From NCBI GenBank assembly GCA_015178975.1, contig WHVD01000017.1, forward strand, positions 558,001 through 622,000: 64,000 nucleotides of DNA, written 5' to 3'. A program made the position numbers and the translations under genes. The notes beneath the pieces are model-generated. The model had not been told where the DNA came from, did not search any database, and saw nothing but the letters and a program-made list of their open reading frames with translations. Positions 5,553 through 56,400 of this stretch are shown in pieces. Position 1 is the first letter of the stretch. Every line of letters starts with the position of its first letter. The stretch comes from Hysterangium stoloniferum. Taxonomy: Eukaryota > Basidiomycota > Agaricomycetes > Hysterangiales > Hysterangiaceae.

Positions 5553-9615
<4,063 letters not shown>

Positions 9616-26948: not shown

Positions 26949-27855
26949 ATGTCTTTGCCCAACTTCCTCACTCCTATCATAGCCAAAGTTCCTCTCCTTA
27001 CAGAAGACAATTATTCCAAATGGAGCGATGCAATGTCTATGGTCTTTTTAGGTGCTGGTGATTTTTGAATTACAGATAATGAAGATACTGTGGCTTCCAC
27101 ATCCCCTACTTCTTCTGTGCAAACAGATAAGCAAATGGCAGCCATCATCTGGTCTACTATTAGTGATGAGTTGCAGTATTTGGTTATAGGGCAGACTTCA
27201 GGTTTAGCTGCTTGGAAAGCAGTGAGGGAACACTTCCAGAGGTCTACAATGGCTCGTCATTTCAAATGTCATGAGGATTTCTATCATATTGAGCATGATC
27301 CTTCTAAATCCATTGACATTTACATCCATGCTATTGAAAGTGCTTGCCAGAACCTCATATCTTTAGGTTGTGTTATTGATGATTGTCAAACATTGGATGT
27401 CCTCCTCATGAACATTCACCCTTCCTACCACACCATTCATACTTCCATTCTCACTGCCAAATTTGAACCCTCTCTTTCTGATACCAAAGGGATTCTCATT
27501 GGTTCAGCTTCCTCTGCCATTGCCATCAAATCTGAGCTGATCGATGTTGCATATGCAGCTGGTCCAAAGCATGGGAATGTTCGAAAACAATCTGGTCAGT
27601 TTTCTAGGTCAGACACTACTCCACCATCTATTTTAGAAGATGACAAAGGTTTTCATTGGTGTGATCCTACCAATGAGGGTCACTATCACCATTGTGGTCA
27701 CCCAGGTCATATTTCTGCATTTTGTGTCTACACCATGCTCCGAGAAGTCAGGGAATGGGTCATAAGTGGTCCTCTAAAGCCACCATATTTTGCCTCCTCC
27801 TCTACCAACACTGCTCAAACAGAACAAGTTTTATCTTTCACCATTGTTAATAAAT
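26949..27855 (+). pseudogene. Copia-type Gag (UBN2-like) with a premature stop
   Basis: The frame opens at 26,949 (MSLPNFLTPIIAKVPLLTED, typical of Copia Gag N-termini). It is broken by TGA at 27,066-27,068, where related proteins usually have Trp. It then stays open to the nested insertion. Gag features: AWKAVREHF and a helical core (residues about 80-200 after the stop), then a zinc-knuckle remnant YHHCGHPGHISAFC in which the first Cys is Tyr. The last codons are displaced by the element at 27,856, which supplies a new stop at about 27,875. Gag forms the retroelement particle and binds RNA; this copy is probably inactive. Confidence 0.8.
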
Positions 27856-28104
27856 TGTTAGAATTAAGCTTGTGAGAACAGAGAGCAATAAGGTTCCGTT
27901 TGTCTATTTGGCCGTAAGGCAAACGAATGGCTAGATACATGGACTCTAGGCTACTTATATGTATCTGTTAAAAAAAAGGAATACTAAAATAGAGAACAAA
28001 AGGGGAGAACAAAAGTGGAGAGACAAAAGGCTTGACAATGGTGCGTGCAAACCTTTGATTACATAAGCAGAATGAACACATAATCAGCTTGATAAATTCC
28101 AACA
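27856..28104 (-). repeat. LTR of the nested element (left)
   Basis: 249 bp, TGTTAGAATTAAGC to AATTCCAACA. Confidence 0.85.
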
Positions 28105-29136: not shown

Positions 29137-30649
29137 ACATACTGGTTAGCAGAAGTAACCAAACTCAAACAACCGCATGCTGCACAGAGTCACAGATATG
29201 GATAGGGACTATTATGGATACATGTGGGTACTTAGTGTTCTGAACCACAAACTCCAACATATGTATCAATGACAGGTGCATTAACAATAACAATTCATCG
29301 AAAATTTGTCATTATTTGAAGCTGGTATCTACATAAGTAGTTCAGTCAAACGTATGCCATGCTAGTTGAAACAGGCAAATGGAGTGATACAGAGTATGGA
29401 GCAAAAATTCAAGGAAATCCAAAGAATGAGTAGTATACCTGGATCGGTATATACATGAGTGCCGTGTAAGGAACAAAGATGTGTTACTTACCATATTTCA
29501 GTCATGTCAGAGTAGCACATACCCACTTCCCCTCGTCATGAAGCTTTGATGAAGATGCCATTAGTGAAAGGCTGCTGTCTAATGCAGCCTTACATTGGCA
29601 TCGGTCCAGACGTTGATAGGACCAAACTGTATTCCTCAAGAACAGCGAGTACAATACATGATGATGATGGTAAGTAAAACGATTAACTAAAAACCATACT
29701 ACGTGTCTGTTATAATGTAATCAGTATGTCGTAAGTTACCAGGCTTACAGTTAGCAAACACAAGTTGGAAAAATGCGAGCACCGACCTTTGAGGAGCAGT
29801 TACAATACAACCCCCATCATTCTCAGTAATACACGTAGAATCGAATAAAACAAGACCTTCCATGCACCTCAAACAAAGCTTATGCCATGCCCTCCCCCCC
29901 ACCATCACTTCATGAATTGCGCCTGAAAACATCACCATCTGCTCTTCCCATGGATCCCATGAAGTTGGGCACCACTACCATCTTAAAGAAGGAATCAACA
30001 TCACAGGTGTTTTCTTCCATGCATCTAGCGTGGGATGAAAGGATCACTGCGATATCCAAGGAAATAGCTGGGCGAATTGTACGGGGCGTACGGGGTTGGC
30101 GATACATCTGAGCAATGTGGTGGTCGGGAATACCGTCCATGGAAGGCACATCTATGGAGAGAACCAGGAGCAAAGTTCACAAATAAAATGCCAGATATCC
30201 AGAGAATGCCAATGCAGACTACGAACCAAATAATCCAATGCAGCAAAGGATGACCACAACCAAAGGACAACCAAACATTCAGTGAGGATGCATGGGTTTC
30301 CCATTGACTCCTGTCTGAAGTTGGACAATGTAATCTTGAAAGGGCACAGCACATAAGCTGAAGCCATGTCCTTCCCCAGAACATCTGCAGGTTTCTCTGG
30401 AGACCTACCTATGTGCCCTGCACTTAACAACATGTTTGTTTTAACCTGTACTCCTTCATGTATATAAGAGCCTCTCTTTGCCCTCTATTGAACAAGCAAT
30501 TTTGTTATATCTTATTTACAAAGCCCATTCTTAAATCAGAAGCTTAAGTCTTATGCTCCATCTTACTCCTACAACCAGTTGGAGATATCACAGTATCTCT
30601 TACTGTTGAAGTTCTATGTTCTACAGCATTAGCCTTGCATCAGCTTTTT
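29137..30649. other. No recognised gene; mixed sequence with a repeated LTR-like motif
   Basis: About 29,900-30,170 retains CpG and is open on the minus strand for 87 codons (containing IDVPSMDGIPDHHIAQMY), but I do not recognise the protein. At 30,350-30,369 is a copy of the recurrent CACATAAGCTGAAGCC motif. It is followed by a TATATAAG at about 30,462 and ends near ...ctcctaca at 30,577, which could be a degraded LTR. Confidence 0.4.
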
Positions 30650-31400
30650 GTATACAGTGAGGGACAAAACTGTTCTCATGTTTTGCCATTTCAGATTGTT
30701 TTGTTTATACATAGATCATGGACATAAAATTGAAAAAATATGAAAATATTCAACTGGATACTCTGACATCATGACATCTTATCTGTACAATAACAATTAT
30801 GTAGTACCTGTACATATATGGTAAGTATACAAATATTTCCTTTAAGGATCATCATGAGAAAGGTTTTGCCCCTGACATTCTGAAACATATAAACTCCTAT
30901 GTATCAATGCTTTGGGTAACCTCCTGTGGTGTTTATCACAGCTGCCACTCTTCTAGGCATACTTTCAATCAAATTCTGACACACCTCTGGCTTCATCCTA
31001 TCCCATTCCCTTTGCACATGCTCCTACAATTCCAGTACCCCATTTGGTGCTATTGATATTCTCCAAGTGTCTGTTTGAGGGGATGCCTTAGGCATTCAAT
31101 GGGATTAAGGTCTACAGACTGCTGCCCATGACATAACCTTAACCCCATTGTCAGCAAACCATGTTTTGGCTTTCTTGAAGATCATCTTCCAGAATCTGAA
31201 CATACAGTTCAGCATCCATCCTTCCATCAATATTGCATGCATATCCAACACCATCCCATACCGTGTGTTAGAATCCCTGTTGTTTGGCCCCCTGCAAGCT
31301 TGTTTTGCCCTCATAACCCTCTGGTACTCCACTATCGGCACCCCAACCATGGTGTTGCCACCTATGGTGCCCCGACACTTGGTTTACTGTAAGTTTCCCC
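30650..31400 (-). pseudogene. Tc1/mariner transposase C-terminal relic
   Basis: The minus strand retains pieces of the DDE half: MVGVPIVEYQRVMRAKQACR, then FKKAKTWFADNGVKVMSW (about 31,130-31,190), matching the Tc1 segment just before the DLNPIE motif. Farther downstream in other frames are VSEF and PKALI fragments. The start of a terminal repeat, CAGTGAGGGACAAAACTG, lies at about 30,655. The N-terminal part is absent and several frames are needed, so it is dead. Confidence 0.7.
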
Positions 31401-31744
31401 TTTGATCATTCAGAAGATGTATATATATTAGGTTAAAATTTGGAGTTAAGCATCTGCCCCACCCCGTGTTTCGGCAAATTTAGGCCACTATCTCTTTTTC
31501 CTTACCCATCTTATATGACTTATTCAAAGAGGGTAAGGAGCCAGTAAGGGTGTAAGACAACAGCCGATTTAAAGACGGCTACCTTATTTTGCTCCTTGTG
31601 TAATGAGATTTATACTCACAATAAGGAGTCGACGAAAAAAAGTTAGTATTACATAATACATGATCACCAAACAACCATGGTACTAGAGCTAAAGGATGAT
31701 ATGAAACCGCTTTTGCTAATTTAATGAAGCCCAGTTCCAGCTCG

Positions 31745-32700
31745 CTAGAGCAAGGTAGCATTAAAGCCAGCAACTGCCCGTTTGCCCACTCCTCTGACAT
31801 GTATCAACAAGGCGACGTGGAGGTGTGCCCGAAGCAACTCCATGCTACATGGGGGGATGGTATTCAAATTTGACGGTCGAATATTTGCAGTGGGGTATTG
31901 TTCCAAAACCGTAGCACCCGACTTCTCGAAACGAACAATTTTATGTATACCCTGGTCAGACTGCTATGAAAATTAAAGAGCAGAACGTAGGGTAAAACCG
32001 ACATACCCATATGCTCCATTGATAGTCATCGAATAAACTGTGTATATCTGCGCAGAGAAGCATAGCATTGTGAGGACGATCTGCAGCCTGACGAGTAGAT
32101 ACTTGTGCCCGAGCAGATGCTGACAGGGTCTCTATCCATCCTCGCTGCATGTGAGAAGTGAGAAGAATAGATTCCGTGACGTAAGTCTGTACTCACGACA
32201 CCAACACCGATTAATGGATATGTATGTGCAACCTCAAGCCCTGGGAAATTGCCACCACGAGCACGTTTAACAGCGGCCTGGCCTGTGACTAGGCAGCACT
32301 TATCTCTCATGCGTACGGCAATGCGAGTTCCGGTATTCTGAGTGTGTTAAGTTGAAGTTGCATGATAACCCTAGCAATGGTAGACTTACACGAGATGGTG
32401 TACCGCTTGGAGAAGGTGTACAGGTCTGCGATGGGGAACGGCTCCGCCGCTTGAATTCGGTGAGAACGAGCTTTGGCCAAAAAGAGATAAATTTCTTATC
32501 CTGCCTGTCTGGAACAAAACGTCCAACGTAGGCGTTCGCGGATGAATGGAACCACTATTACCAAATCGATATATCATATAATGCCCCTCTTTCACTGAAC
32601 TTGTGAGGGTTCTCGCAAGAGGAGGCTCTTTAGGGTGTACAATGGCTCCTATCGGAAACGACATCGTCCTCGGATCCTTGGGGCAGCGGAACAAAGCCAT
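31745..32700 (-). CDS. HNH-endonuclease-domain protein, about 252 aa, 5 exons
   Basis: Exons joined by eye: 32,700-32,562 (MALFRCPKDP...MIYRF), then DRQDKKFISFWPKL, then RMRDKCCLVTGQ...LEVAHTYPL, then RPHNAMLLCADIHSLFDDYQ, then QSDQGIHKIVRFEKSG to TAG at 31,745. Introns are 45-60 nt with GT..AG, and all joins keep frame. The HNH signature is complete in order: CLVTG, EVAH, HN, and DIHSLFD with YQWSI after it, as in Pfam HNH_2 (PF13391). Such proteins are numerous in mushrooms; their substrate is generally unknown. It is divergent from the related broken gene at 33,222, about 520 bp away. Confidence 0.75.
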
Positions 32701-42018: not shown

Positions 42019-45000
42019 CTACAATGTTGTCAATAGTCCGTGTCTATCCATTTCCAGTATCAAGGCCCGAATACAATCAGAAGGAATATCACCCATGAAA
42101 TGTGTCATGAAGGACACAATATGAGCAACTTCAATAATGGTATGGCTTACAAAAGCTGGAAAAATTGGCATTCATACAACTAGAAGATGGAAGCACTCAC
42201 CATCCTCCAAGAGGATTTCAATCAGCGTGCCACGGTGCGGGAGAGGTGGTTCGGGTAGATAGAATTGGCACAGTGCAATGAGGACGATCTGCAGCTTGAG
42301 GTTGGAAAAGTAACCTGAAAAACGGTAAAAGGAGTCAATGCTGGATACAATTAAAGCATACCATATTTAGAAAAACCTGCAAACAGTTTTACACCGGATA
42401 ATACAAATTCATCGTTCTTGGCAGCAACGAGGGATGCACAGTGATGTTCTAGGTTGCAACGAGCAATTAAATCACGAAAGCAATCTTTGAAAACATAGCT
42501 AAGAAGAAACAGTTGACTTGCGTCTCAAGGCACGCACCGTGTGCTGCAAGCTTGACGAGTAAGTCTACAACACGTGTTGCATTGGATGGGTGTATATCCT
42601 CCAAAAGTTTAACAATACTAGGAATAGCCCGCGCAATGGCAGATCTAAATTCCGCTATGGTCAAATGTCAGCTGGATTCCTATTCGATTATGTGGCACTG
42701 AACCCTGGTCTGAAAGCTTCGCCAGGGCTGATGAAGCACTGGGTCGAACATGGTACCGAAGGTCGTTCAGAAGTGCAACAATATCGGGAATAAGACGCGA
42801 CACGTCAGCTTGAAATTCGGCTGGGGACAATGTCACTCGGAGTCCCATCCCATGATAATGCACAGCACCTTGCTCTGAAAGATTGGCCAGGGCGAATATT
42901 CCGTTTGATCGAACATCGGCGTCAGGGTGCTTCGAAAGTGCAACAATGTCGAGGATGGCGCTCAAAATGGCAGGCCGAAATTCGACTGTGATCCAATGTC
43001 AGCTAGATTGCCATCCCATTGTGAGGCACCGCACCTTGCTCGGAAAACTTGGCCAGGGCCAATGCTGCGCTTGAATGAACAAGGTAGTCAGTGTCCTTCA
43101 AAAGTGCGACAATGTCAGGGATGGCAGGCGAAATGGCAGGCCGAAATGCGGCTGCGATCAAATGTCAGCAAGATTACCGTCCCAATATGAGGCACTGCAC
43201 CTTGATCTGAAAGCTTGGCCAGGGCCGATAGTCCATTTGATTGAACAAGGGACTCGGTGACCTTGAAATGTGCAACAATGTCGGAAATGACATCCGAAAT
43301 GGCAGCCCGAAATTCGGCTGTGATAAATGTCAGCTGTGTTCTCGTCCCATTTTCGAGGCACCGCACCATGTTCTGAAAGCTTGGCCAGTGCTGATCCAAT
43401 ATTTGATTCACCCCACGGGTCAGGGTCTCCCAAAAGTATGGCAATGTCGGGTATAGCATCCACAATGGTAAGTCGAAATTCGGCTGGGGTCAAATGTCAG
43501 CTGGGTTCCCATCCCATTTTGATACAAAGCACCTTGCTCTGAAAGCTTGGCCAGGGCCGATGCTGCCTTTGAACGAACAAAGATGTCAGTGTTCTTCAAA
43601 AGTGCAACGATATCAGGAATGGCACGCGACACGGGAGCTCGAAATTCGGCTAGGGTCAAATGTCAGTCGGATTCCCATCCCATTATGGTGCAACGCACGT
43701 TGCTCTGAAAGCTTGGCCAGGGCCGATACTGCGTTTGAACGAACGACGTCGTCAGTGTCCTTCAAAAGTGCAACAATGTCGGGAATGGCATTCGAAATAG
43801 CAGGCCGAAATTCGGCTGTGAGCAAATGTCAACGATGTGATGTTCCCATCCCATTATGAGGCACTTCACATTGTTCTGAAAGTTTTGCCAGGGCCGATAC
43901 TGTATTTGATCGAGTAGATGACCTAGAGTCCTTCAGAAGTGCAGCAATGGCGGGAATGGCACCCAAAACGGCACCGCGAAATTGGGCTGTGGTTAAATGT
44001 CAACTGGATTCCAACCTGTTATGATGCACCGCACCTCGCTCTAAAAATTTGCCTAGGGCCGATACTGCGTTTGATCCAAGGGAGAGGTAGGGGTCCTTCA
44101 AAAGGGCAACAATGTCGGGAACGGCCCCCGAAATGGCAACTCGGAATTCGGCTGTGACCAATTGTCAGCTGGATTCCCATCCCATTCAGAGACACCCCAC
44201 CTTGTTCTGAAAGCTTGGCTAGGACCGATACTCCCCGGGACCGAAAGAAGCCATCAGAGTCTTTCAAAAGTATGACAATGTCAGGAATGGCACCGGCAAT
44301 GGCGGTTCGAAATTTCTCTGGAAACTCATCAATTATGGCAGTTCGCAAGAAGTCGGCACACTTACCAAACACATGGAGAGTAATCACCGCCTGTCCTAGA
44401 GCCAATTTTCCTTCATGGACTCTGAGGTTGAAGGTTGGTAGGGTGAGGCCAAAATTGTGAGCTTTCAAGTAGTTTGGACATTGGGAAATGAACAATATGT
44501 AAAATAACATATGACGGCCCTTCACGTACATGCCATCGTTATGTGTTGAAGGATCCTGATACCTTCATGACGCCAAATGCTGTGAGTACTCTGTAAGAGA
44601 TCTATAGTCGACCAGAGACGGCTCGTCGTGAATTGGGAGATGTGGTGTGTGTCGGGCTTATTGACTAGATCGCTGTTATATGTATGAGTATGGGGTGGAG
44701 CGGAAGGGGGGATAGTCAAGCTTCGGAGTGGAGTTGAAGGGGGATTGTGCGGCGATGGCCGCATGTTGTCAGACAAACCGACAGCACCAAGTATGTAACC
44801 CCTGACAAGAGGAAGGAACTTCGCTATGGAGACTTAAGAAAAATGCTTCATGAAGAATTATTGGACTACCTTGTTCAGATAACTTGGCCAGCAGAAATGC
44901 TGCGCTTTGGCGAACGGGGGCATAAGGGTACTTCAAAAGTGTAACAATTGCAGGAATGGCATTCAAAATGGCAGCTCGAAATTTATCTGTGGTGAAATGT

Positions 45001-48000
45001 GAGCTAGATTCTCACCCCACTGTGACTCATCCCACCTTGTTCTGAAAGCTTGACCAGGGCTGATACTCCATCTGACCGAGCGGATTCGCCCCAATATTGT
45101 AAATGTGCAACGATGTCAGGAATAGCATTCACAATGGCAACTTGAGATTCAACCATGGTCGAAAGGGCAGTCCGAAATTCGACTGTGGCCAAGCGTTACT
45201 TGGATTCCAATCCCATTAGGCGGGACCATACCTTGTTCTGAAAGCTTGGCCATGGTACATGCTGCCTTTAATCGAACAAGGGACCTAGAGTCCTTCAAAA
45301 GTGCAGCAATGTCGGAAATCGCACTTGAAATGGCAGCTCGAAAGTCGACTGTCAACAAATGTCAGCTGGGTACTCATCACAATATGAAGCACCGCACCTT
45401 GGTCCGAAAGCTTGGCCAGTGCTGATACACCATTTGATCGAACATCTTCGTCGGAGTCTTTCAAAAGCATGACAATGTTGGGCATGGCATCCACAATGGC
45501 AGGCCGAAATGTGGCTGGTGTCAAATGTCAGTTGGCCTTCCATCCCTTTAAGAGATACCGTACCTTGATCCGAAAGCTTGGCCAATACTGATACACCATT
45601 TGATCGAACGGATGCGTCGGAGTCTTTCAACAGCATGACAATGTCGGGTGTGGCATCGACAATGGCAGGCCGAATTTCGGCTGGGCTCAAATGTCAGCTG
45701 GTTCCCATCCCATGAGGAGGCGCTGCAACCTTCCTTGGAAAGCGTGGCCAGGGCTGATACACCACTTGATAGAACACATTTGTCAGTGTCCTTCAAAAGT
45801 GTAACAATGTTGGGGATGGCATCAGCAATGGCAGACCGCAATTCGGCTATGGTCAAATATCAGCTGGGTTCCCATCCCATCATAAGGCACTGCACCCTGT
45901 TCTGAAAACTTGGCGAGGGTCGATTCCCCCTTTGAACGAACAGAGGAGTCAGTGTCCTGAAAAAGTGCAACAATGTCGGGAATGACACGCGAAATGACAA
46001 CTTGAAATTCGGCTGTGATTAAATGTCAGCTGTGTTCATATCTTCTTATGGGGCACCACACCTTGTTCTGAAAGCTTCGCCAGGGCCAACACTCCGTTTG
46101 AGTGAACCCAGTCGTCAGTGTCCTTCAAAAGTGTAACAATGTTGGGAATGACGTCAGCAATGGCAGGCCGGAATTCGGCTGTAGCCAAATGTCAGCTGTG
46201 TACCCATCCCATTACGAGGCACTGCACCCTGCTCCGAAAACTTTGCCAGGGTCGATACCGCATTTGAACGAAGCCAGCGGTTAGTGTCCATCAAAAGTGC
46301 AACAATGTCAGGAATGGTACGCGAAATGGCAACTCGAAATTCGGCTGTGATTAAATGTCAGCTGGGTTCACATGTTATTATGGGGCACTGCACCTTGTTC
46401 TGAAAGTTTCGCCAGGGCCGTCACTCCGTCTGAACGAACCCAGTCGTCAGTGTCCTTCAAAAGTGCAACGATGTCGCCAATGGCACCCGAAATCGCATCT
46501 CGAAATTCGGCTGTGATCAAATCTCAGCAAGATTACCATCCCATTATGAGCCACCGAACCTCGTTCTGAAAGCTTCGCCACGGCCGATACTCCGTTAGAT
46601 CGAACGGTGCTGTTAGAGTCCTTCAAAAGTACAAGAATATGGGGAATGGCCCCACAAATACCAGTTGGGAAATTCGCTGAAAACCGCTGCATATTATATC
46701 AAACTCCTTTTCCACTTCGCATACTCTTACCACATTTCACCAGTAATAATTCTCCGGGATCAGTTCCATTTTGAAAGCGGTCGATCCTACATTGTGCTAG
46801 TCTCTTTATCCATTCGTTTCCTTTTCCGGCCGTGCCAAGACGTTTAGCTAAGTATATTTGCATTCATGTAAAGAGGACAGTTCACCTGCTATAACACCCT
46901 TCCCTTCCAGCATTCTCTGGCAATCTTCTGTTCATCAATTAGTTTCTTTCCTGTAGCCATGACAAATGGCCTTACGAAAATGCCAATATGCCAATATTAC
47001 TTCTTCGCAGCTTGCACGTAGGCCCTCTTTCTCTGACAATGCTCCATCAATAGCAGCCATCATCAATGTCTGTCGCTCGTAAGGTGCTGCACCCAGCGTG
47101 ATCAGAGTTTGGATGTCTGAGCCTGTCGACACCCCCAGGGTACCCTCAACCATGTTGACCATAATACCAATAAGTACCGCCAACCCCAATGTCCTCAGGC
47201 GAGGCTCTAAACTGTCCAACCGATGTAAGGGTCCCCCGACTTGTATCAGGGTTTTGAAGGGGGTAAGGTAATCTTTGTCTATCCGTTTGTCTGTTCGTGG
47301 CGATAGGAATCGTGACATTGCCAGGAGAGAAACTTCGGCAAGCTCCGTATCAGGTACAGTGACGACGCCCGCGGTAACATGAAAGCAACTTTCAAATATT
47401 TTGGATATTTTTTCCGTTACGGCTCGTTGGCACAGAGCAATTCGCAACTGTTCACATGGTTTCGCACCTGCTACAGCCCTCAGTGCCTCCTGAACTGCCT
47501 CCTCCGACATAGATTTTTCAATCACCCATGCCAAGACAACAGCTTCAAGTTCGGTCCGTTGAGGCTTGCGTTGCGCTTCGACCAAGAACCGAGAAAGGCT
47601 CTTTACCCATTCGGAAATTCTAAATGGATATGTCCATGTTGGTGAAAAAGACCCAGGATCGTTTGACCCGGACGTCCCATACTTTGCGCCTGCAGAGACG
47701 ACCGGGAAAAAGCGTGACATTGTTGTCTGAAAGGGACAGGCCGGGGAAAACAAGGGAAATAATGTGCCGAGTATATATAGCGCGATCCCGCATCCGGTCA
47801 AAAAAAGCATAAGCATGCCTAAAGCTACGCTGCTATTCCAGGTGAATAAGACGAGGCCTGCAGAAAAAAGAAAGAGAGCTAGTTGGATCAAAAGCGGGAT
47901 GCCAGTAACAACTGACTCGAGGCGCCATTGCTGCGCTCTCTTAACACGAAGGAGGCGTTCACATGCATCACTTGAGCGACTTCCTGGGGATACAGGAATA

Positions 48001-48641
48001 TAGTTCGCCAGCCATTCCCTTGCAAGTACAGCACAAAGCGCACTGAAGAGGGTCAGACCGAGACTACTGAACCACAAATGGTTGACAATAAGGGAAGATT
48101 TGGCGACTTGAAAAGGCGGAGGCGGAGAGGTAGTCCCAGCGAACTGATTTTGGAGTGTGTGGAGGATTTCCTGAAGAGGATCTACCTGCATATCCTTCCT
48201 ACTTTCGATCAGGAAAGCGGTAAGAATCCCTCCAAACAAACCTGCCTGAGAAACTATGAATTAAATATCCCATAAAGAAGAATGAATTCAGTTTACAAAT
48301 ATGAGAAGCTCGTCGATACCAACTTGCAATGAACTGGCAAGTTCTCTGTCCTCTTTTTCGGTTTCCTTCAGATATAATGACCATACGGACGAATCCGATT
48401 GAAGGTGCTTGGCATAGGGATTGCCTTCTTCGCTATCAACGCCATTACCGCCACTGAATGCTGCCTTGGTTGGAGTTGAGGGAACCGCGGTAGACCGCAA
48501 CGAAGGTTGACGGTTGATCGTTCCTGATGCTTCCGTTTGTGTGCTTCAGTTTAGAAAAAGCGTAAAATCTGTTGTAATACCTGCGGCAACTGGTATCTGT
48601 GATTCAGCGGAGCTACTATCTCCTGCATACTGCGAAGACAT
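42019..48641 (-). CDS. DUF6535 membrane domain plus 22 exon-encoded ARM/HEAT repeats, copy A
   Basis: ATG at 48,641 (MSSQYAGDSSSAESQIPVAA), intron, then the DUF6535 N-terminal motif (SVWSLYLKETEKEDRELASS), another intron, and the large exon to about 47,015 with roughly four hydrophobic segments (LFGGILTAFLI; LWFSSLGLTLFSALCAVLA; GIPLLIQLALFLFSAGLVLF; MLMLFLTGCGIALYILG). An intron beginning GTGCAAG joins in frame to KKLIDEQKIARECWKGR. Then come 11 repeat exons, a linker (SLTIPPSAPPHTHTYNS), 11 more repeat exons, and a tail ending GLLTTL at 42,019. DUF6535 is a basidiomycete membrane domain of unknown function; the repeats should form a solenoid that binds partners. One junction (about 44,380-44,560) needs a frame change I cannot splice cleanly, so a second gene could begin there. 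Confidence 0.75.
42538..44317 (-). repeat. Copy A, distal array of 11 repeat exons
   Basis: Exons: 42,538-42,654, 42,704-42,820, 42,869-42,985, 43,035-43,151, 43,201-43,317, 43,367-43,483, 43,533-43,649, 43,699-43,815, 43,870-43,986, 44,035-44,151 and 44,201-44,317. All eleven are 117 nt. Introns are 48-49 nt, one of 54 nt. The last repeat exon (42,538-42,654; VKLLEDIHPSNA) is the most divergent and leads into the C-terminal tail (NLEHHCASLVAAKNDEFVLS; GYFSNLKLQIVLIALCQFYL). No stop codon interrupts any exon. Confidence 0.88.
44870..46686 (-). repeat. Copy A, membrane-proximal array of 11 repeat exons
   Basis: Exons on the plus coordinates: 44,870-44,986, 45,036-45,182, 45,232-45,348, 45,398-45,514, 45,564-45,680, 45,730-45,846, 45,896-46,012, 46,062-46,178, 46,228-46,344, 46,394-46,510 and 46,560-46,686. 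All are 117 nt except 147 (ten extra codons) and the first-transcribed 127-nt entry exon. Each encodes EFRxAIxxxIPDIVxLLKD, a variable loop, then VRSNGVSALAKLSEQ: two helices. Introns are 48-49 nt, phase 1, with a CTGAC branch motif. Most variation is in the loop after LLKD. Confidence 0.88.
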
Positions 48642-53413: not shown

Positions 53414-56400
53414 CTACAATGTTGTCAATAGTCCGTGTCTATCCATTTCCAGTATCAAGGCCCGAATACATTCAGAAGAAATATCACCCATAAAATGTGT
53501 CGTGAAGGACAAAATATGAGCAACTTCAAAAATGGTATGGCTTACAAAAGCTGGGGAGATTGGCATTCATACAACTAGAAGATGGTAACAATTACCATCA
53601 TTCAGGAGGATTTCAATCAGCGTGCCACGGGGTGGGAGAGGGGGTTCAGGTAGATAGAAACGGCACAGTGCAATGAGGACAATCTGGAGCTTGAGATTGG
53701 AAAAGTAACCTGAAAGACGGTAAAAGGAGTCAATGCTGGAAACAATTAAGGCATACCATATTTAGAAAAACCTGCAAACAATTTCACACCGGATAAAACA
53801 AGTTGGTGTTTCTCGGCAGCAACGAGGGAAGCACAGTGATGTTCAAGGTTACAACGAGCAATTAGATCACGAAAACAATCTTTGAAAACATTGTTAAGAA
53901 GAAACTGTTGATTTGTGTGTCAAGCCACGCACCGTGTGCCGCTAGCGTGACGAGCAAATGGACAACATATTCTGCATTGGATGGGTGTCTATCTTCCAAA
54001 AGTTTAACAATACTAGGAATAGCACGCGCTATGGCAGATCTAAATTCCGCTATGGTCAAATGTCAGCTGGATTCCCATGCGATTATGAGGCACTGAACCC
54101 TGGTCTGAAAGCTTTGCGAGGGCCGATAAAGCATTTAATCGAACATAGTCCCAATGGTCCTTGAAAAGTGCAAGAATATCGGGGATAGCATGCGACACGG
54201 CAACTCGAAATTCGACTGGGGACAATATCACTCGGAGTCCCATCAATTGTGATGCAACGCACCTTGCTCGGAAGGCTTGGCCAGGGCCAATACTGCTCCT
54301 GATCGGACAGCGTCGGCAGCGTCCTTCAAAAGTGCAACAATGTCCGGGATGGTACTCAAAATGGCAGGCCGAAATTCGGCTGCGATCAAATGTCAGCTTG
54401 GTTACCATCCAATTATGAGGTACTTCACCATGCTCGGAAAGTTTGACCAGGGCCAATACTCCGGTTGATCGAACAAAGGGGTCAGTGACCTTCAAAAGTG
54501 CAGCAATGTCGGGAATGACACCTGAAATGGCGGCCCGAACTTCGGCTGTGAGCAAATGTCAACTTTGTTCTCATCCCATTACGAGGCACCGCACCGTGTT
54601 CTGAAAGCTTGGCCAGTGCTGATTCGCCATTTATTTGAACGGATGGGTCGTGGTCTCGCAAAAGTATGACAATGTCAGGTATCGCATCCACAATGTCGGG
54701 TATCGCATCCACAATCCCAGGTCGAAATTCGGCTGTGATCAAATGTCGGCTGGGTTCTGATCTCACTATGTTGCAAGGCACCATGCTCTGAAAGCCCGGC
54801 CAGGGCCGATGCTACGTTTAAACGAAGAAAGCCGTCAGTGTCCTTCAAAAGTGCAACAATGTCGGGAATGGCACACGACACAGCAGCTCGGAATTCGGCT
54901 GGGGTGAAAATGTCAGTCGGATTCCCACCCCATTATAATGCCACACACATTGCTCTGAAAGCTTGACCAAGGCCGATACTGCGTTTGAACGAAGGTAGAA
55001 GTAAGGGTGCTTTAAAAGTGCAACAATGTCGGGAATGATATTCGACATGGGAGGAAGGAATTCAACTGTGATTAATGTCAGCTAGATTACCATCCCATTA
55101 TGATCCACCGCACCTTGCTCTGAAAGTTTGGTCAGGGCCCATGCTGCGTCTGAACGAACAGAGTCGTCAGTGTCCTTCAAAAGTGCAACAATGTTGGGAA
55201 TGGCATTCGAAATAGCAGGCCGAAATTCGGCTGTGATCAAATGTCAACTATGCTCCCATTTCATTATGAGGCACCGCACCTTGTTCTGAAAGCTTTACCA
55301 GGGCCGATACACCATATGATCGAATATCTGACCTAGAGTCCTTCAGAAATGCAGCAATGTCGGGAATGACACCCGAAATGGTGGCCCGAAACTCAGCTGT
55401 GCTCAAATGTCAGGTGTGTTCTCATCCAATTACGATGCACCCCACCATGTTTTGAAAGCTCAGCTAGGGCCGATAGTGCGTGGGATCTACCCGACCCCGA
55501 CCGCTGCCAGTCCTTCAAAAGTACAACAATGTCGGGGATGGCACTCGCAACGGCGGGGCGAAATTCGGCTGCGGTAAAATGTGAACTGAATATCCAACTC
55601 ATTTTGATGCACCGCACCTTGCTCTAAAAGCTTGGCCAGAGTTGATACTCCAACGGAGCCGACAGAGTTCTTCAAAAGTGCAACAATGTCGGGAATGACC
55701 CCCGAAATGGCAGCTCGCAATTCGGCTGTGATCAATTGTCAGTGGGATTCCCATCCCATTGAGAGACACCCCACCTCGTTCTGAAAGTTCGGCCAGTGCC
55801 AATACTCCGTTGGACCGAACGGAGTCATTAGAGTCCTTCAAAAGCATGACAATGTCGGGAATGGCACTGGCACTGGCGGTTCGAAATTCGTCTGGAAACG
55901 CATAAATCATGGCAGTTTGCAAAGAGTCGGGGCACTTACCAAACACATGGAGAGTAATGACCGCCTCTACAAGGGCCAATTTTCCTTCACGCATTCTGAG
56001 GTTGAAGCTGGGTAAGGTGAGGCCTAAATTGTGCGCTTTAAAACAGTTTGGAAATTGGGCAATGAATAATATACGAAATAATGTATGAGGTCTCTTCACG
56101 TTCATGCCATCGTTACCTGTTGAAGGATCTTGATGCCTTCACGACGCCAAATACTGTGAGTACTCTGTAAAAGATCTATAGTCGACTGGAGACGGCTCGT
56201 CGCGAATTGGGGGATGTGGTGTGTGTCGGGATTATTGACTAGATCACTGTTATATGTATGAGTATGGGATGAGGCAGAAGGGGGGATAGTCAAGCTTCGG
56301 AGTGGAGTTGTGGGTGGATTGTGCAGCGATGGCCGCATGGTGTCATACAAACCTACAACACCAAGTATGTGACCCCTGACAAGAGGAAGGAACTTCGCTA

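What the first reader, a model, noticed from the sequence alone, without database searches (positions are those of the whole stretch)
42538..46686. Each ARM/HEAT repeat is one 117-nt, phase 1-1 exon in a tandem exon-intron array
Twenty-two consecutive exons in gene A each encode one 39-residue repeat; apart from one +30 exon and the 127-nt entry exon, all are exactly 117 nt. Introns are homologous, nearly all 48-49 nt, and always in phase 1. The repeating unit is therefore about 166 bp of DNA including its intron. With symmetrical phase, any unequal crossover or conversion between units yields an in-frame protein with repeats added, lost or swapped. No exon carries a stop. Joined to a DUF6535 membrane domain, this looks like a rapidly diversifying membrane-anchored binding protein, perhaps for self/non-self or pathogen recognition. 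The structure is seen directly; the recognition role is inference.
Basis: partly seen in the sequence, partly recalled or inferred. Interest (0 to 1): 0.88.

Follow-up and report, generated by a model that had tools for sequence, protein, structure and literature searches.

The report
Fungal exon-per-repeat HEAT protein family
A fungal gene family builds a membrane-anchored protein from more than twenty similar building blocks, each on its own exon, and evolution changes mainly a few amino acids per block that, in related designed proteins, touch the binding partner.

Summary
The array is real. On the minus strand, gene A has 22 HEAT-repeat exons (21 of 117 nt, one of 147), split 11 + 11 by a coding linker rather than consecutive. 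The 20 introns inside the blocks are homologous, 48-54 nt and phase 1. A spliced 1,668-residue model has one terminal stop. Splicing is supported only indirectly: branch-point position, exon lengths in threes while introns are not, and a Hysterangium protein that reads through the same intron. The genome holds 1,368 matches to the intron/exon junction.

The family evolves in two ways. In gene A's group, repeat order is frozen across paralogues. In a sister group, units are homogenised, scrambled and block-duplicated. In both, codons 23-24 at the helix A/B turn exceed the intron/synonymous neutral rate (about 2x and 4.8x); helix-B positions 28, 32 and 35 do so in the second group only. Four of the six alphaRep randomised positions are among its top six.

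So: a diversifying HEAT binding solenoid on a DUF6535 membrane domain. Recognition is inferred. Nearest parallels are Tetrahymena 90-bp-exon LRR genes and fungal NLR repeats.

The parts
42019..48641 (-). gene A, 31-exon model, 1,668 residues
   Evidence: spliced model with one terminal stop; 29 of 30 introns phase 1; full-length relative P0001 of Mycena albidolilacea, 37% identity over 100%. The join 46976 to 46820 is uncertain
46976..48529 (-). DUF6535 domain exons (48529-48297 and 48245-46976), four main hydrophobic stretches
   Evidence: PF20153 145.3 bits, cut-off 23.9, at window 47835-48383; 118.8 bits on the second exon alone; hydropathy
44870..46676 (-). HEAT block 1: 11 repeat exons (ten of 117 nt, one of 147 nt) with phase-1 introns
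   Evidence: HEAT PF02985 1.8e-22 on eight concatenated repeats of this block
44366..44823 (-). central linker: exons 44823-44530 (294 nt) and 44461-44366 (96 nt)
   Evidence: aligned in 18 arrays; linker exon 1 open in frame here; same linker in Hysterangium protein P0022
42538..44317 (-). HEAT block 2: 11 repeat exons of 117 nt
42019..42484 (-). C-terminal exons 42484-42377, 42314-42201, 42155-42019 (all entered in phase 1)
   Evidence: shared with gene B, with the stop after the same last residues
53414..60379 (-). gene B, tandem paralogue, 33-exon model, 1,752 residues, 24 repeat exons (12 + 12)
   Evidence: The donor of its first repeat intron (58297) reads AT where the others read GT; the model uses the homologous place

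Best explanation
Gene A is one of a large family (75 DUF6535 matches, some of them pieces of one gene, and 1,368 repeat-junction matches in this genome) that makes a membrane-anchored HEAT solenoid. Each 39-residue, two-helix repeat is one phase-1 exon with its own ~49-nt intron, so a 166-bp unit can be added, lost or exchanged without shifting the reading frame. The repeat scaffold is kept, while the turn between helix A and helix B (codons 22-24), and in the second group positions along helix B (28, 32, 35), change faster than neutral sites: the surface by which HEAT-like binders hold protein ligands. New specificities arise by point substitution in frozen arrays (gene A's group) and additionally by unequal exchange and conversion of exon-intron units in homogenised arrays (second group). 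Most likely job: a cytosolic-facing, membrane-anchored sensor or decoy for varied protein ligands, in non-self recognition or defence. Shown: anatomy in the sequence, homogenised versus frozen arrays, constrained scaffold and diversifying sites. Inferred: splicing in vivo, topology, ligand binding, the recognition role.
For: HEAT fold: Pfam; among solved sequences the best matches to a consensus array are a synthetic fusion (9sah), alphaRep chains and PP2A-A, to P0001 PP2A-A, then the synthetic fusion and alphaRep; helices at about 1-19 and 23-37 of the unit in a model of P0022. Function kept: 0 of 155 class I and 0 of 201 class II 117-nt exons carry a stop, with 75 and 31 expected in simulations at intron divergence. 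Diversifying sites: class II, 7 arrays, 99% intervals above neutral at codons 5, 15, 20, 22, 23, 24, 28, 32, 34, 35, 36, with 23 and 24 at 4.7-4.8x and above 1 in 7 of 7 arrays. Gene A-anchored units, 19 groups: codon 23 2.14 (95% 1.55-2.85), codon 24 1.88 (1.11-2.82); pooled other 33 codons 0.71 (99% 0.53-0.94). In Mycena P0001 positions 23, 27, 24, 22, 31 are the most variable (17 of 21 matched repeats used; entropy only). Four of six alphaRep randomised positions (PMC3754942, passages) fall among the top six codons, hypergeometric p 0.0025, and four among the eleven flagged, p 0.042. Unit exchange: class II arrays share few collinear units (3-12 of 25-35) against 11-22 of 21-26 in class I; runs of near-identical units at one offset in 5 of 7 class II and 0 of 8 class I arrays, L049 units 23-25 and 28-30 fully identical with introns; r2 between sites falls from 0.25 to 0.10 with distance in the unit. 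Membrane: four main hydrophobic stretches and a basic loop (7 K/R, 4 D/E) between the second and third.
Against: No RNA, protein or phenotype evidence. For gene A's group the pooled six-codon set reaches only 1.39 (99% 0.94-1.91), and codons 22 and 28 alone are not significant. Neutral rates rest on short introns and on paralogues that may exchange sequence, and class I and II were assigned after seeing the identities. Codon 23 also has raised fourfold diversity (0.253 against 0.095 overall), which selection alone does not predict. Linker exon 1 is broken in 6 of 17 parsed arrays (five by length, one by a stop), so not every array is an intact gene. Both structure models have low overall confidence (mean pLDDT 62), and fold searches list armadillo proteins (engineered, importin, catenin) first, with low TM-scores; the one alphaRep chain in the 50 rows shown is rank 28, none. 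Hydropathy shows weaker hydrophobic windows elsewhere too.
Confidence: 0.55

Rival explanations
1. Trafficking or scaffold proteins (in the manner of Vac8 or the PP2A A subunit) whose exposed turns are merely under relaxed constraint; the exon-intron array is a by-product of internal duplication.
For: Solved relatives include PP2A-A and Vac8; gene A's array is collinear and stable.
Against: Relaxed constraint cannot exceed the neutral rate, yet codons 23-24 do in both groups; a family of this size with 21-35 units in the complete arrays would be unusual for a scaffold (the last point is recalled knowledge).
Confidence: 0.2
2. Minisatellite-like exon duplication without function: a decaying, transposon-rich cluster.
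For: Truncated or frame-broken copies exist (L039; decayed exons in L044_41).
Against: 0 stops in 356 exons of 117 nt against about 106 expected; exon lengths keep to multiples of three; linker and C-terminus conserved.
Confidence: 0.05
3. A local mutational hotspot or targeted hypermutation at codons 22-24, rather than selection, makes the variable site.
For: Third positions of codons 22 and 23 are also diverse (0.40, 0.54) and fourfold diversity at codon 23 is 0.253.
Against: Neighbouring codons 21 and 25 have fourfold diversity 0.045 and 0.010; further variable codons 28, 32, 35 lie apart from them.
Confidence: 0.1
4. A genomic-conflict family (for instance a driver, killer or its resistance) rather than a sensor.
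For: Clustered, multi-copy, fast-evolving, in a region with retroelement and dispersed repeats.
Against: No Pfam match to a toxin-like domain over its cut-off in the parts scanned; architecture shared with Mycena over the whole length.
Confidence: 0.1

Closest known systems
Tetrahymena 90-bp-exon LRR gene arrays (PMC6564038)
   Same: repeat-sized exons of one exact length, uniform intron phase on both sides, variable unit number, exons scrambled between paralogues, an older diverged group and a younger group with repeats visible in the DNA (abstract and passages)
   Different: LRR, 90 bp, phase 2 and ciliate there; HEAT, 117 bp, phase 1, ~49-nt introns and fungal here; that paper reports purifying Ka/Ks for most of its genes, here single codons exceed neutral. 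Its authors write that they are unaware of another eukaryote with such uniform exons and introns
Fungal NLR repeat domains, Podospora HNWD and ANK/TPR genes (PMC2873952, PMC4986451)
   Same: high-identity internal repeats, exchange between units and paralogues, diversifying selection on a few surface positions per repeat (passages)
   Different: those carry a NACHT/NB-ARC domain; none was found in the DUF6535 exon here, the anchor is a membrane domain, and the unit is an exon plus intron (the word intron does not occur in the main text of either paper)
alphaRep designed HEAT-like binders (PMC3754942; chains 6fsq, 6ft5, 4zv6, 4xl5)
   Same: among the closest solved sequences; randomised positions 18,19,22,23,26,30 align with codons 23,24,27,28,31,35 by the LKDxDxxVRxxAAxALGx motif (the numbering anchor is my inference)
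   Different: artificial, 31-residue unit (recalled); here 39 residues; codon 27 is not variable in class II and codon 31 not significantly so
DUF6535-HEAT 'armadillo-type' proteins of Mycena (P0001, P0007) and HEAT arrays of Hysterangium (P0022, P0002)
   Same: P0001 has the same N-to-C order and the 39-residue unit, P0007 DUF6535 with about five repeats; P0022 has the linker and a retained copy of the intron, 14 of 15 residues
   Different: annotated by name only; the titles listed in the literature searches made show no study of them

Membership tests
DUF6535 family (PF20153) | profile match over the curated cut-off | tested here: met
   145.3 bits in six-frame search, 118.8 bits on the main exon, cut-off 23.9
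HEAT repeat (PF02985, PF13646) | profile match over cut-off; two-helix unit | tested here: met
   77.7 and 79.8 bits; helices at about 1-19 and 23-37 of the unit in the model of relative P0022
exon-unit repeat array as in Tetrahymena LRR genes | exons of one exact length with one symmetric intron phase | tested here: met
   425 of 468 parsed repeat exons are 117 nt; phase 1 throughout the repeat parts of both gene models
Tetrahymena-type LRR gene | leucine-rich repeat of 90 bp, phase 2 | tested here: not met
   HEAT, 117 bp, phase 1: same way of building, not the same family
fungal NLR | NACHT or NB-ARC domain | tested here: not met
   no such match at E up to 0.1 in the main DUF6535 exons of A and B nor in P0001 at 1e-20; the short N-terminal and C-terminal exons of A and B were not scanned for it
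fungal NLR-like repeat evolution | homogenised repeats plus diversifying selection at surface positions | tested here: met
   class II arrays; in gene A's group only the selection part is met
non-self recognition receptor | ligand-dependent response or incompatibility phenotype | not testable with these tools
   no expression, isolate or bench data

The most novel reading that the evidence does not exclude
The genome keeps a store of well over a thousand interchangeable exon cassettes, each one two-helix binding module with a variable patch, that recombine within and between dozens of membrane-anchored receptors and, because every cassette is symmetric, might also be skipped or combined by alternative splicing: a natural, evolving counterpart of the designed alphaRep libraries serving fungal immunity or allorecognition.
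Probability: 0.3. Interest if true: 0.92.

Novelty: new variant of a known kind. Interest (0 to 1): 0.74.

Why it matters
The Tetrahymena authors wrote that they were unaware of a second eukaryote with such uniform exon-intron repeat units. This is one, in fungi, with another fold, exon length and phase. Because every unit carries its own intron, each array has a built-in neutral yardstick, so selection on single residues can be measured without outside data. The most variable residues coincide in good part with those that protein engineers randomise in alphaRep binders. If the recognition role holds, mushrooms would have a receptor repertoire outside the NLRs, with a modular route to new specificities.

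Tried and rejected
Tried without gain: literature searches for fungal exon-per-repeat or HEAT-array genes listed nothing on this family (listings only, capped); the one paper of the library that mentions DUF6535 (PMC12387923, passage only) lists it in a table of down-regulated genes. A flank search for a second haplotype hit a dispersed repeat and said nothing about alleles. The structure models give helices for the repeats but no surface that could be measured here, so 'ligand face' rests on the alphaRep paper and helix spacing; the fold searches only say alpha-solenoid.

Considered and rejected: bacterial or archaeal source (111-Mb genome with spliced genes); an insertion between repeats 11 and 12 (the interval is in 18 of 20 arrays and codes for protein); neutral array.

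Rows dropped: of 20 parsed arrays, 15 were used for the two classes. Left out were L039 (truncated), L047 and L044_41+1 (fragmentary) and L040 and L054 (intermediate identity, 0.81 and 0.76). L042, used in class I, is cut by the end of its locus. Stops found outside the counted 117-nt exons: L039 unit 1, L040 unit 1, L045 unit 17, L049 unit 6, L044_41+1 units 6 and 11, and two of three decayed exons on the other strand of L044_41.
Full report
What is there. The window lies in contig C79 of an unnamed 111-Mb assembly. On the minus strand, 46676-42538 holds 22 repeat exons, 21 of 117 nt and one of 147 nt. The 20 introns within the two blocks are 48-54 nt, GT-AG and phase 1. After the 11th repeat exon comes a 552-bp interval. 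It is not an intron of the common kind: it holds two coding exons, and the same interval (525-552 bp) is found in 18 of 20 parsed arrays, the other two being fragmentary. The array is therefore two blocks of 11. Splicing everything gives a 1,668-residue protein with one terminal stop; 29 of 30 introns are phase 1. Its parts are an N-terminal DUF6535 domain, HEAT block 1, linker, HEAT block 2 and a short C-terminus that gene B shares. Gene B at 60379-53414 is a full tandem paralogue with 24 repeats. One join in each gene, between the long exon and the 90-nt exon, is uncertain, and gene B's first repeat intron has a changed donor.

Is splicing real? There is no RNA. Indirect evidence: exon lengths depart from 117 almost only in threes (408 of 412 interior exons) while introns do not (28, 286 and 81 by residue class). 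The parser of that count preferred frame-keeping donors; without the preference it is 396 of 401, with introns 28, 271 and 76. A CTNAY branch point lies 8-22 nt before the intron end in 313 of 389 introns, 296 of them at one distance, against 32 of 389 shuffled. A Hysterangium protein, P0022, contains in frame the translation of this very intron, 14 of 15 residues, where 200 shuffles reached at most 7; automatic annotation seems to have retained it. That also shows the exon-intron unit in another genus. P0022 carries the same linker.

How large is the family? 75 DUF6535 matches, some of them pieces of one gene, and 1,368 intron-end/exon-start matches within three mismatches, against none for the reversed pattern. 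I parsed 20 arrays from the window and 18 fetched stretches: 468 repeat exons, 425 of them 117 nt. The complete arrays have 21-35 units.

Two modes of evolution. In class I (gene A's group, eight arrays used) units within one array are on average 68-72% identical, while reciprocal best units of different arrays are on average 84-91% identical. Gene A shares 21, 21, 20 and 19 reciprocal best units of 22 with four paralogues, all in order; with gene B, L045 and L042 it shares 14, 16 and 12. In class II (seven arrays, 25-35 units) units are on average 84-90% identical within the array. Five of the seven have runs of near-identical neighbouring units at one offset, as after block duplication, and none of the eight class I arrays has; L049 units 23-25 and 28-30 agree fully, introns included. 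Order is largely lost between class II arrays, and linkage between sites decays within the unit.

Selection. No stop occurs in 155 class I and 201 class II exons of 117 nt; 75 and 31 would be expected in simulations at the intron divergence from consensus. Against the higher of intron and fourfold diversity, class II replacement diversity exceeds neutral with 99% intervals at 11 of 39 codons, above all 23 and 24 (4.7-4.8 times, in 7 of 7 arrays), then 22, 28, 35 and 32. In unit groups anchored on gene A, codons 23 and 24 lead again (2.14 and 1.88); the 33 codons outside the six-codon set are constrained (0.71); none of the other ten codons printed has a lower bound above 1. Whole-exon dN/dS is only 0.54-1.30 between class I arrays and 0.68-1.05 within class II, so the signal lies in few sites. 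Codon 23 also has raised fourfold diversity, which leaves a local hotspot possible. In Mycena P0001 the most variable positions over 17 of 21 matched repeats are 23, 27, 24, 22 and 31, in a different lineage; there is no neutral control there.

What the sites do. In the model of P0022 helix A spans about unit residues 1-19 and helix B 23-37 (mean pLDDT 62, the regular repeats about 70-90). The variable sites thus sit at the A/B turn and at steps of three to four along helix B. The best solved relatives of a consensus array by sequence are a synthetic fusion and alphaRep designed binders, whose randomised positions 18, 19, 22, 23, 26 and 30 (PMC3754942, passages) correspond to 23, 24, 27, 28, 31 and 35. 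The numbering anchor, VR at alphaRep 20-21, is my inference from the aligned chains. Four of the six are in our top six (p 0.0025) and four in the eleven flagged (p 0.042). The paper's library mimics natural variation at these positions, so this says 'the same surface', not 'proof of binding'. In its A3/bA3-2 complex the concave faces with these residues touch. Fold searches with the two low-confidence models list armadillo proteins first and say no more than alpha-solenoid.

Mechanism and place among the known. Best account: a membrane-anchored HEAT solenoid with a diversifying binding face, built from exon cassettes. Topology: the basic loop between the second and third hydrophobic stretch suggests that both ends face the cytosol (inference; weaker hydrophobic windows occur elsewhere). 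It works like the Tetrahymena 90-bp-exon LRR genes in gene architecture (PMC6564038, abstract and passages) and like fungal NLR repeats in evolution (PMC4986451 and PMC2873952, passages), but it is a member of neither. The literature searches made listed no title on this family; they cover open PubMed Central papers only, and some lists were capped. The host is probably an agaricomycete by its relatives: Hysterangium 54-57% in the HEAT part, Mycena 40%. No species is claimed.

Weak points. Classes were set after seeing the data, 5 of 20 arrays were left out, and paralogues may exchange sequence. In linker exon 1, 11 of 17 parsed arrays are in frame; L051, L052 and L055 share a one-base loss and L044_41 a gain at a C/T tract, L039 is also shifted, L054 has a stop, and L056 (295 nt) was not parsed in that count. 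Whether these are assembly errors, truncated proteins or other splicing is open.

Noticed in passing
L051, L052, L055, L044_41, L056: linker exon 1: Frame-changing length differences at or near a C/T homopolymer tract, although the 117-nt exons of these arrays, both blocks, hold no stops. Assembly error, alternative splicing or a real switch between long and short protein.
   Followed up: partly
window 54732-54595: Gene B has a 138-nt repeat exon containing an in-frame 21-nt tandem duplication (TRF 54669-54722; IPDIVDAIPDIVILL), a small-scale lengthening of helix A.
   Followed up: no
window 58297: The donor of gene B's first repeat intron reads AT instead of GT; at homologous places L047 has AT, and L048 and two units of L050 have GC.
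   Followed up: no
window 27069-27875: Copia-type gag fragment (PF14223, 4.1e-14); 30000-32000 is a dispersed repeat with matches on many contigs.
   Followed up: partly
window 8497-9135: Open frame with a SLIDE domain (PF09111, 2.9e-39), as in ISWI chromatin remodellers (recalled).
   Followed up: no
L039 (C512:394500-404400): A copy 98% identical to L043 over 5.1 kb, where the match ends before the 5' part of the array, and frame-shifted: a recent dead duplicate.
   Followed up: yes
P0002, P0022 (Hysterangium stoloniferum): Public gene models of this family look fragmented or fused, probably because annotation misses some of the 49-nt introns; counts from annotated proteomes may be too low.
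   Followed up: partly
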